Part shown: positions 25,958 to 52,897 of the stretch, piece by piece | Layout: each line of letters starts with the position of its first letter | How positions within the stretch are numbered: the stretch's first letter is position 1 | Assembly: GCF_009707865.1 (NCBI RefSeq) | Contig: NZ_WMBA01000027.1 | Coordinates: 1-64,000 of the forward strand | Length of the DNA stretch: 64,000 bases | Direction: 5' to 3' | Source of the DNA: Amycolatopsis pithecellobii | GTDB taxonomy: Bacteria; Actinomycetota; Actinomycetes; Mycobacteriales; Pseudonocardiaceae | Made by a program: the position numbers and the translations under genes | Notes under the pieces: generated by a model | Told to the model about the DNA's origin: nothing | What the model saw: only the letters and a program-made list of their open reading frames with translations | Databases searched by the model: none

Positions 25958-26644
25958 TCAGCCGGCGACGCTGACCGCGTCCACGACGAACACGAGCGTC
26001 TCGTTGGGCTTGATCGTCTGGTTGCCCTGCGCGCCGTAACCCTTGTCCGGCGGGATGATCAGCAGCCTGCGGCCACCCTGCTTGATCCCGGCGAGGCCCT
26101 CGTCCCAGCCCTGGATGACGCTGCCGCCGCCGAGTGTCAGCGGGAACGCGCCGGAGGCGAACGAGTTCTGCTGGTCGACCTTGTCCGACCAGGTGTACAG
26201 GTCGTAGTTGACCTGCAGCTGGCTGCCGTTCTTGGCGGCCGCGCCGGTGCCCGGCTCGAGGTCCTTGGTCAGCAGCGTCGCCGGGGCCGAGCAGGTGTCC
26301 GGGATGGTCACGGTCGGCTTGCTGCCGAACTTCCCGGTCACCTTGACGTCGTCGGCCGTGCACGGCTTGAGCTGCTGCGTCGTCGGCGACGCGGCGGCCG
26401 ATGCCGAGACACCCGCCGGGTTGGGCGCGGGATAGGTCGGGCCATCACCGGGCGGGAACGACGACGGGCTCTGGCCGTTGTCGCAGGCGGCGAGACTGAG
26501 CGCGGCGGCCACCGCGAGGGCGAAGATGCCAGCTATACCAATCCGACCTAAAGCAGGCCGAGCCTGATCAACCGGAAGCCGGCCTACGCCACGCGGATCG
26601 CCGTGACTGCCGGTCGGATTGGTATCGGACGACACAGTACGCAT
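25958..26644 (-). CDS. FKBP-type peptidyl-prolyl isomerase lipoprotein, signal region interrupted by a MITE-like element
   Basis: Secreted, membrane-anchored prolyl isomerase. The FKBP domain fills the C-terminal half (VNYDLYTWSDK, SVIQGWDEGLAGIKQGGRR, then IPPDKGYGAQG). A lipobox LAAC gives the modified Cys54 after the hydrophobic stretch FALAVAAALSLAAC. The 34-residue stretch before that hydrophobic core is abnormally long. Residues 7 to about 37 come from an inserted palindromic element (26536-26624). Removing 87 nt keeps frame and leaves MRTVSSDIAGIFALAVAAALS, an ordinary lipoprotein signal. The gene therefore appears to have absorbed an in-frame insertion. The protein is 228 residues from ATG 26644. 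Confidence 0.9.
   Translation of the reverse strand: MRTVSSDTNPTGSHGDPRGVGRLPVDQARPALGRIGIAGIFALAVAAALSLAACDNGQSPSSFPPGDGPTYPAPNPAGVSASAAASPTTQQLKPCTADDVKVTGKFGSKPTVTIPDTCSAPATLLTKDLEPGTGAAAKNGSQLQVNYDLYTWSDKVDQQNSFASGAFPLTLGGGSVIQGWDEGLAGIKQGGRRLLIIPPDKGYGAQGNQTIKPNETLVFVVDAVSVAG
26536..26624. mobile_element. MITE-like palindromic element, copy 1 (inside FKBP lipoprotein gene)
   Basis: An 85-bp core begins CCAATCCGACC (26538) and ends with its exact complement GGTCGGATTGG (26622), with TA on both sides (26536-26537 and 26623-26624). The palindrome extends one more base at each end. Internally it shares AAAGCAGGCC and GATCGCCGTGACTGCC with copy 2 at 52785-52871. Arms differ from copy 2 by a matched change on both sides, so pairing is preserved. 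There is no coding capacity of its own. TA flanks resemble those made by IS630/Tc1-type transposases, which is inference. Confidence 0.8.
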
Positions 26645-40470: not shown

Positions 40471-40734
40471 CGCGAGTTGAGCGTTGCGTGCGCGCGAGTT
40501 GAGCGTTGCGTGCGCGCGAGTTGAGCGTTGCGTGCGCGCGAGTTGAGCGTTGCGTGCGCGCGAGTTGAGCGTCGGGAGCGCGCGAGTTGAGCGTCGGGAG
40601 CGCGCGAGTTGAGCGTCGGGAGCGCGCGAGTTGAGCGTCGGGAGCGCGCGAGTTGAGCGTCGGGAGCGCGCGAGTTGAGCGTTGCGTGCGGCGGGAACGC
40701 GCAACTCGCGCAGCGGGAACGCTCAACTCGCGCG
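40471..40734. repeat. Array of 22-bp repeats: ten direct units plus two inverted units
   Basis: The unit starts CGCGAGTTGAGCG and repeats exactly every 22 bp at 40471, 40493, 40515, 40537, 40559, 40581, 40603, 40625, 40647 and 40669. The rest of the unit is TTGCGTGCG in units 1-4 and 10 (the last slightly degraded) and TCGGGAGCG in units 5-9. Two units in the opposite orientation follow (40696-40711 and 40718-40734), again 22 bp apart, ending 10 bp from the rbpA stop. This fills the whole kinase/rbpA intergenic space. There are no spacers, so it is not CRISPR. Frames read through it give only repetitive peptide. Confidence 0.95.
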
Positions 40735-40744
40735 GACCCGGGAA

Positions 40745-52784: not shown

Positions 52785-52871
52785 TACCAAGCCGACCGAA
52801 AGCAGGCCAACCCGCCCAACCGGCGGTCGAGGCACTTTTGCCCGATCGCCGTGACTGCCGTCGGCTTGGTA
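52785..52871. mobile_element. MITE-like palindromic element, copy 2 (between the JetA-type gene and PPOX gene)
   Basis: An 83-bp core begins CCAAGCCGAC (52787) and ends GTCGGCTTGG (52869), with TA at each side (52785-52786, 52870-52871) and a palindrome that extends two more bases outward (GT/AC). It shares AAAGCAGGCC and GATCGCCGTGACTGCC with copy 1 at 26536-26624. The changes in the arms relative to copy 1 are compensated on the other side. It fills most of the 136-bp divergent promoter region of the kleisin-type and PPOX genes. Confidence 0.8.
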
Positions 52872-52897
52872 ACCGCCAACACAGTAGTTTGAGGGCC

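What the first reader, a model, noticed from the sequence alone, without database searches (positions are those of the whole stretch)
26536..26624. A MITE-like element sits in frame inside a lipoprotein signal peptide
Seen: an 85-bp core with perfect terminal inverted repeats (CCAATCCGACC) and TA on each side lies within codons 7-37 of the FKBP lipoprotein gene. Removing the core plus one TA takes out exactly 87 nt (29 codons). This leaves MRTVSSDIAGIFALAV..., a normal lipoprotein signal with its LAAC box. The present protein has an odd 34-residue run before its hydrophobic core. So the element appears to have inserted without breaking the frame, and both ends read through. Inference: a TA-targeting transposase in the genome mobilises it.
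Basis: partly seen in the sequence, partly recalled or inferred. Interest (0 to 1): 0.8.

Follow-up and report, generated by a model that had tools for sequence, protein, structure and literature searches.

The report
Mobile palindrome inserted in-frame in genes
A roughly 100-base mobile DNA element, present in about a hundred copies in this actinobacterium, has jumped into a lipoprotein gene without breaking its reading frame, and sister copies have done the same inside several conserved enzymes, much like the palindromic elements known from Rickettsia.

Summary
Window 26535-26548 and 26612-26625 are perfect 14-bp inverted arms. The repeated unit runs further, to TA at 26638-26639. In the genus, 17 of 18 orthologous FKBP genes have a single-TA site and one (G004) is filled at the same TA. 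The insert is 102 nt (34 codons): the lipobox Cys is residue 54 in both filled genes and 20 in eight empty ones.

The family is patchy: 99 model matches in this genome, 62, 41 and 39 in three relatives, none in 11 of 19 genomes of the genus. Of 236 copies sampled, 16 interrupt a gene: 15 of 16 inserts are divisible by three, 12 of 16 stay open. Four hosts (helicase, thiolase, amidohydrolase, hydantoinase) align to solved structures in two pieces that part at the element.

No mobiliser was identified. Y1 transposase is absent. IS630-type genes are commoner in element-bearing genomes (6 of 7 against 3 of 12), but those examined lack the element's ends. It works like Rickettsia palindromic elements, with asymmetric ends.

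The parts
26536..26639 (+). the whole element with the TA at each side (100 bp between the two TAs; net insert 102 nt); + is the direction of the family model
   Evidence: family alignment, covariance-model match 26532-26643, empty sites in 17 of 18 same-genus orthologues
26535..26548 (+). left inverted arm, flush with the left end
   Evidence: perfect 14-bp pair with 26612-26625
26612..26625 (+). right inverted arm, lying inside the right end
   Evidence: the shared sequence continues past it
26626..26637 (+). tail that makes the ends asymmetric, ending CACAG before the right TA
   Evidence: conserved across copies
26536..26537 (.). left TA, the target duplicate
   Evidence: single TA in empty sites; T 0.91, A 0.83 over the copies sampled
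26638..26639 (.). right TA, the target duplicate
   Evidence: single TA in empty sites; T 0.78, A 0.76 over the copies sampled
25958..26644 (-). FKBP-type lipoprotein gene that hosts the element near its start (228 residues, lipobox Cys at residue 54)
   Evidence: ORF, Pfam FKBP_C, orthologues
52785..52886 (+). second copy of the same family in the window, between genes (net insert 100 nt)
   Evidence: profile match E=3e-22, sequence

Best explanation
Window 26536-26639 is one copy of a family of non-autonomous mobile palindromic elements (about 100 bp plus TA) that spread in some Pseudonocardiaceae. A copy enters a TA, mostly in a GTTA context, and leaves a TA at each side. The commonest net insert is 102 nt and the antisense frames are often free of stops, so a copy landing in a gene on the opposite strand is often read through as 34 extra residues. 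Here it lies just after the second codon of the FKBP lipoprotein gene; the protein is most likely made with a lengthened signal-peptide n-region and keeps its lipobox. Shown: the family, the empty sites, the insert length, the open frame, and in-frame copies inside conserved enzymes. Inferred: that the insert is translated, that the lipoprotein still works, and that an enzyme acting in trans moves the elements.
For: Family and controls. Empty sites in 17 of 18 orthologues. Lipobox Cys at 54 in 2 filled genes, at 20 in 8 empty ones. Target context over 236 copies. In-gene copies: 15 of 16 inserts divisible by three against 122 of 220 others (Fisher p=0.0016; stratified by nearest-copy identity z=2.06), 12 of 16 open. 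Alignments to solved structures that part at the element: HrpA (query 67-502 and 536-1031 on chain 37-474 and 474-975), thiolase (7-80 and 121-443 on 1-72 and 80-399), amidohydrolase (47-309 and 347-552 on 85-318 and 322-512), hydantoinase (12-504 and 543-934 on 320-814 and 815-1229).
Against: No autonomous parent or mobiliser was found. The inverted arms are not both terminal. Four of 16 in-gene copies carry stops or break the frame (L015, L100, L158, L248), and the sigma-factor host in A. iheyensis looks truncated further on, so being in a gene does not prove the gene works. Openness in genes (12 of 16) is not clearly above what the elements' own make-up predicts (about 9 of 16, my arithmetic). 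Multiples of three may partly reflect young copies. The FKBP element shows no clear coding constraint of its own.
Confidence: 0.8

Rival explanations
1. An IS630-type (DDE_3) transposase of the host moves the elements in trans, as proposed for the RUP elements of Streptococcus pneumoniae. This concerns the mobiliser, not the nature of the element.
For: TA target; DDE_3 in 6 of 7 element-bearing and 3 of 12 other genomes of the genus, p=0.02; the RUP precedent (PMC2229807 passages).
Against: G009 has 41 element matches and no DDE_3 match; G012 has 17 DDE_3 matches and no element. The DDE_3 loci lack the element's ends, and where TA-flanked inverted ends could be found (some loci of G006, G010, G018, G003, G012) they differ from the element's. 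IS630 ends are symmetric (recalled), these are not.
Confidence: 0.25
2. The FKBP gene is silently decaying: the insert blocks export or expression and the open frame is a leftover.
For: dN/dS is 0.48 for G000-G004 and 0.62 for G004-G007, against 0.17 to 0.31 for three other pairs; some host genes elsewhere are broken.
Against: Frame, start and lipobox are intact in both filled species; dN/dS stays below 1, G000-G007 is 0.31, and one empty pair (G018-G009) also reaches 0.51.
Confidence: 0.2
3. The element is removed from the RNA, or skipped by the ribosome, so that the normal protein is made.
For: Copies lie inside conserved enzymes; the RNA or DNA strand folds well (z -2.4 to -4.9 for six sequences folded as DNA).
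Against: Removal would not need a multiple of three or an open frame, yet 15 of 16 in-gene inserts are divisible by three. A frame-breaking copy lies in a YidC gene of G007, but that genome has a second, uninterrupted YidC.
Confidence: 0.05
4. A Y1 (IS200/IS605-type) transposase moves the element as a single-strand hairpin.
For: Asymmetric ends, hairpin, T-TA left context.
Against: PF01797 matches 1 of 19 genomes of the genus, G012, which has no element match.
Confidence: 0.03
5. Native coding sequence: the 34 residues are an ordinary part of this lipoprotein and the palindrome is chance.
For: The frame is open and G004 has the same residues in part.
Against: 17 of 18 same-genus orthologues lack them; the same DNA recurs about a hundred times in the genome.
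Confidence: 0.01

Closest known systems
Rickettsia palindromic elements (RPE)
   Same: Palindromic, 105-146 bp, several families, found in frame inside conserved protein genes as well as between genes (PMC2229807 and PMC10969869, passages)
   Different: Other phylum, GC-rich host; TA at both sides with a target context; asymmetric ends; no sequence comparison with RPE was made. The passages do not give a mobiliser for RPE either
ERIC / RU-1 of enterobacteria
   Same: Small (127 bp), hairpin-forming, TA at the ends and TA duplication, found fused to reading frames, way of transfer not elucidated (PMC2229807, PMC2759123, passages)
   Different: The 2007 paper reports fusions mainly at C-terminal regions and none inside conserved domains of superfamily proteins; here four conserved enzymes are split
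RUP of Streptococcus pneumoniae (IS630-linked)
   Same: 107 bp, TA target, 108 copies (PMC2229807 passages)
   Different: RUP shares its ends with an IS630 element and has stops in all six frames; no such partner was found here and antisense frames are often open
Correia/NEMIS elements of Neisseria
   Different: 24-bp terminal inverted repeats at both ends (table); here one arm lies inside the end

Membership tests
Canonical MITE | Short and without a transposase gene of its own | tested here: met
   about 104 bp with both TAs
Canonical MITE | Many dispersed copies in one genome | tested here: met
   99 model matches in G000, candidates capped at 150; 87 full-length copies read
Canonical MITE | Short target-site duplication | tested here: met
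   TA at both sides, single TA in empty sites; a TA shared by chance cannot be told from a true duplication at one site
Canonical MITE | Inverted repeats terminal at both ends | tested here: not met
   left arm flush, right arm inside the end with a conserved tail after it; hence 'MITE-like' only
Canonical MITE | Ends shared with an autonomous element | tested here: inconclusive
   none found among 19 stretches of G000 with unpaired ends or 14 DDE_3 loci; other transposase families were not searched
Rickettsia palindromic elements | In-frame copies inside conserved protein genes | tested here: met
Rickettsia palindromic elements | Sequence relation to RPE families | not tested
   no RPE sequence was compared
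IS630-derived element (RUP type) | TIR match to an IS630 in the host | tested here: not met
   14 DDE_3 loci of 8 genomes examined, no matching ends; not every DDE_3 match was fetched
IS200/IS605-derived element | Y1 transposase available in the genome | tested here: not met
   PF01797 matches only G012 of 19 genomes
Structured RNA of a known Rfam family | Match above the gathering score | tested here: not met
   two weak matches outside the element

The most novel reading that the evidence does not exclude
The family is a 'gene-tolerant' mobile palindrome: it keeps a net insert of 34 codons and stop-poor antisense frames, its asymmetric hairpin-plus-tail is recognised by an unknown enzyme acting in trans, and it can enter the same preferred TA more than once or leave it precisely. 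The last point rests on G000 and G004 both being filled at the FKBP site while G007, whose nearest upstream flank groups with G000, is empty.
Probability: 0.22. Interest if true: 0.75.

Novelty: new variant of a known kind. Interest (0 to 1): 0.57.

Why it matters
In the passages I read, in-frame mobile palindromes inside conserved genes are described chiefly for Rickettsia. A GC-rich actinobacterial family with about a hundred copies, clean empty sites and enzymes split at the insert offers natural tests of how proteins tolerate 34 extra residues and whether such elements seed new protein segments. Translation, function and mobility can be tested in relatives of Amycolatopsis. The asymmetric ends without an identified transposase also pose a concrete question about how ERIC-type elements move.

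Tried and rejected
Rfam search of the locus: two weak matches outside the element. One plasmid search and one viral pattern scan: no match. Exact end pattern in the named genome collection: one locus, Amycolatopsis iheyensis; exact matching, and the possible omission of near genomes, make this a weak census. Y1 transposase: rejected. IS630: I first took it as not tracking the elements; recounting showed an association (6 of 7 against 3 of 12), so it stays as a rival at 0.25, up from what I had meant to give it, and the odds of the novel case were lowered a little. Parent element by unpaired ends: of 19 stretches of G000 one had a second end more than 110 bp away, 738 bp apart around a TetR-family gene. 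Six TetR relatives in five other genomes lack the ends, so cargo capture is unproven. RNA-level removal: a frame-breaking copy in YidC looked promising, but G007 has an uninterrupted YidC. Selection for open frames beyond the elements' make-up: not shown.

Rows dropped or added for the in-gene count: one search gave 15; L306 and L290 were dropped because the two sides look like different genes; L206 and the two FKBP copies were added by hand because they lie close to the gene start. L093 (CutC-like by eye, open) was left out because its insert is 101 nt. The Fisher test (14 of 15) is superseded. The single G001 match and one of the three G010 matches do not look like the element when read.

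Full report
WHAT IS THERE. The arms ATACCAATCCGACC / GGTCGGATTGGTAT at 26535-26548 and 26612-26625 are perfect complements 63 nt apart. A search of the window's own genome (G000, 7.9 Mb, 144 contigs) with 161 bp around them gave 44 matches. An alignment of 39 of the first 40 loci (L023, a lone right half, left out) shows that the shared sequence does not stop at the right arm but goes on to a conserved ...CACAGTA. Interiors fall into at least three types with the same ends. A covariance model found 99 matches in G000, 62 in G004, 41 in G009, 39 in G007, 10, 8, 3 and 1 in four more genomes, and none in 11 of 19 genomes of the genus (at most 150 candidates scored per genome). The single G001 match and one of the three G010 matches are not the element when read. 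In the family 31 of 297 genomes had matches, mostly strong ones in a second genus; in an even draw of 397 genomes of the order 8 had them, 7 of these in the same family.

THE FKBP SITE. The gene runs from ATG 26644-26642 down to 25958. In 17 of 18 same-genus orthologues the start reads ATGCGTA followed within two bases by GCTGGC; G004 alone has an element there, in the same orientation. The net insert is 102 nt. In ten genomes compared the lipobox cysteine is residue 54 in two filled genes and residue 20 in eight empty ones. No in-frame ATG lies between the start and the lipobox; in-frame GTG codons stand at positions 4 and 45, the latter only nine residues before the cysteine. So translation most likely runs through the element (inference).

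TARGET AND LENGTH. Over 236 full-length copies (87 from G000; 17 source labels, one of which pools several genomes) the left border reads G 0.54, T 0.81, T 0.91, A 0.83, C 0.93, and the right border CACAG, T 0.78, A 0.76. The FKBP empty site, read in the element's direction, is GTTACG and fits. The net insert is 102 nt in 130 of 236, 101 in 47, 100 in 23. Head-to-tail copies sharing one TA or CA occur in L145 and L195. A home-made gene caller places most copies between genes, often within tens of bases of a gene end; scarcity of TA in GC-rich coding DNA may explain it (inference).

INSIDE GENES. Joining the flanks in a script shows whether one frame crossed the site before insertion. Sixteen of 236 copies interrupt a gene (with two rows dropped and three added, see Tried and rejected). 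The insert is divisible by three in 15 of 16, against 122 of 220 other copies (Fisher p=0.0016; stratified by nearest-copy identity as a stand-in for age, z=2.06). Twelve of 16 are open: two FKBP copies, an HrpA-type helicase (L003), an AsnC-type regulator (L087), an MMPL transporter (L094), an ETF-type protein (L133), an amidohydrolase (L198), a hydantoinase (L199), a thiolase (L124), an Nramp transporter (L235), a thioesterase (L206) and a sigma factor of A. iheyensis (L214). All but L003 and FKBP were named by Pfam, FKBP and L003. In some of these (L087, L094, L235) the element lies between or just past the Pfam domains. Four are not open: L015, L100, L158, L248. Four proteins were compared with solved structures; each alignment falls into two pieces that part at the element, with 0 to 7 residues of the homologue left between them. 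The sigma-factor gene looks truncated further on.

IS THE FRAME SELECTED? In G000 antisense frames are open in 177 of 261 cases against a shuffle mean of 111.7 (max 123); in G004 62 of 120 against 53.8 (max 61), in G007 46 of 75 against 31.75, in the second genus 93 of 174 against 76.2. Copies share ancestry, so these are not independent. From the G000 rates one expects about 9 open of the 16 in-gene copies (10 antisense, 6 sense); 12 were seen. The in-frame habit may therefore be largely mechanical, with some selection on length. For FKBP, dN/dS is 0.48 (G000-G004), 0.62 (G004-G007), 0.31 (G000-G007), 0.35 (G004-G006), and among empty pairs 0.17, 0.28 and 0.51: constraint persists, and relaxation in G004 is possible but not shown. 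Within the element 11 nucleotide changes give no clear coding constraint.

SHARED BY TWO SPECIES? Trees of both flanks pair G000 with G007, which is empty; a yidC tree is unresolved. Most of the signal sits in one downstream stretch (43 of 66 sites), the rest is close to a three-way split, but within 150 bp upstream five sites join G000 with G007 and none joins G000 with G004; in the 150 bp downstream two join G004 with G007 and one G000 with G007. The two FKBP elements are 89.4% identical, and each is closer (91.3%) to another G004 copy, L212. Two entries at one TA, precise loss in G007, or recombination all fit; unresolved. Few other sites are shared: flanks matched at both sides between G000 and G004 in 2 cases among the copies sampled.

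MOBILISER. Y1 transposases match only G012, which has no element match. DDE_3 (IS630-type) occurs in 6 of 7 genomes with the element and 3 of 12 without (p=0.02), yet G009, with 41 matches, has none. The 14 DDE_3 loci fetched lack the element's ends. Other transposase or recombinase families were not searched. The consensus hairpin has 8 of 20 pairs with double changes; this may mean recognition of a single strand or just two matched protein-binding repeats.

ORIENTATION. In G000 and G004 the gene after the tail lies on the same strand in 57 of 82 cases (p=0.0005); part comes from divergent gene pairs, but tandem pairs also lean 31 to 15 (p=0.026). Gene calls are from a simple script, so this is a lead only.

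COMPARISON. In behaviour the nearest analogue is the Rickettsia palindromic element; in anatomy ERIC and RUP (passages, not whole papers). Terminal repeats at both ends, a defining feature of a MITE, are not met, so I call it MITE-like. I saw no report of it in searches (listings); subscription journals are largely not held.

Noticed in passing
window 52785-52886 (+): A second copy of the same family, between genes, with a net insert of 100 nt.
   Followed up: partly
window about 40560-40740: A 22-bp unit repeated in tandem with inverted versions of its core beside it, giving many perfect inverted arms.
   Followed up: no
window 26536-26639 (FKBP frame): The window's copy brings a TTA leucine codon into the FKBP gene where G004 has TTC (from the sequences); in Streptomyces TTA codons depend on bldA (recalled).
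   Followed up: no
L131 370-1107 (G000:C80:23269-24006): A left and a right end of the element lie 738 bp apart around a TetR-family gene; relatives of that gene elsewhere lack the ends.
   Followed up: partly
L145 and L195 (G000:C100 and C82): Head-to-tail copies that share a single CA or TA at the junction.
   Followed up: partly
L175 (G000:C88) and L164 (G027): In two genera an element of different type lies between the same two genes, and in both the upstream protein seems to end in element-coded residues; the genes look like murI and a metallo-beta-lactamase-fold gene by eye.
   Followed up: partly
L011 (G000:C80): An element seems to bridge a hydrolase-like C-terminus and a HisC-like gene in one open frame (names by eye).
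   Followed up: no
G007:C16:649500-650250 (L320, L321, L248): A second YidC-type gene is split by a frame-breaking copy, while an uninterrupted YidC gene lies on C12.
   Followed up: yes
G000 and G004 copies: The tail points towards a downstream gene on the same strand more often than not, 57 of 82.
   Followed up: partly
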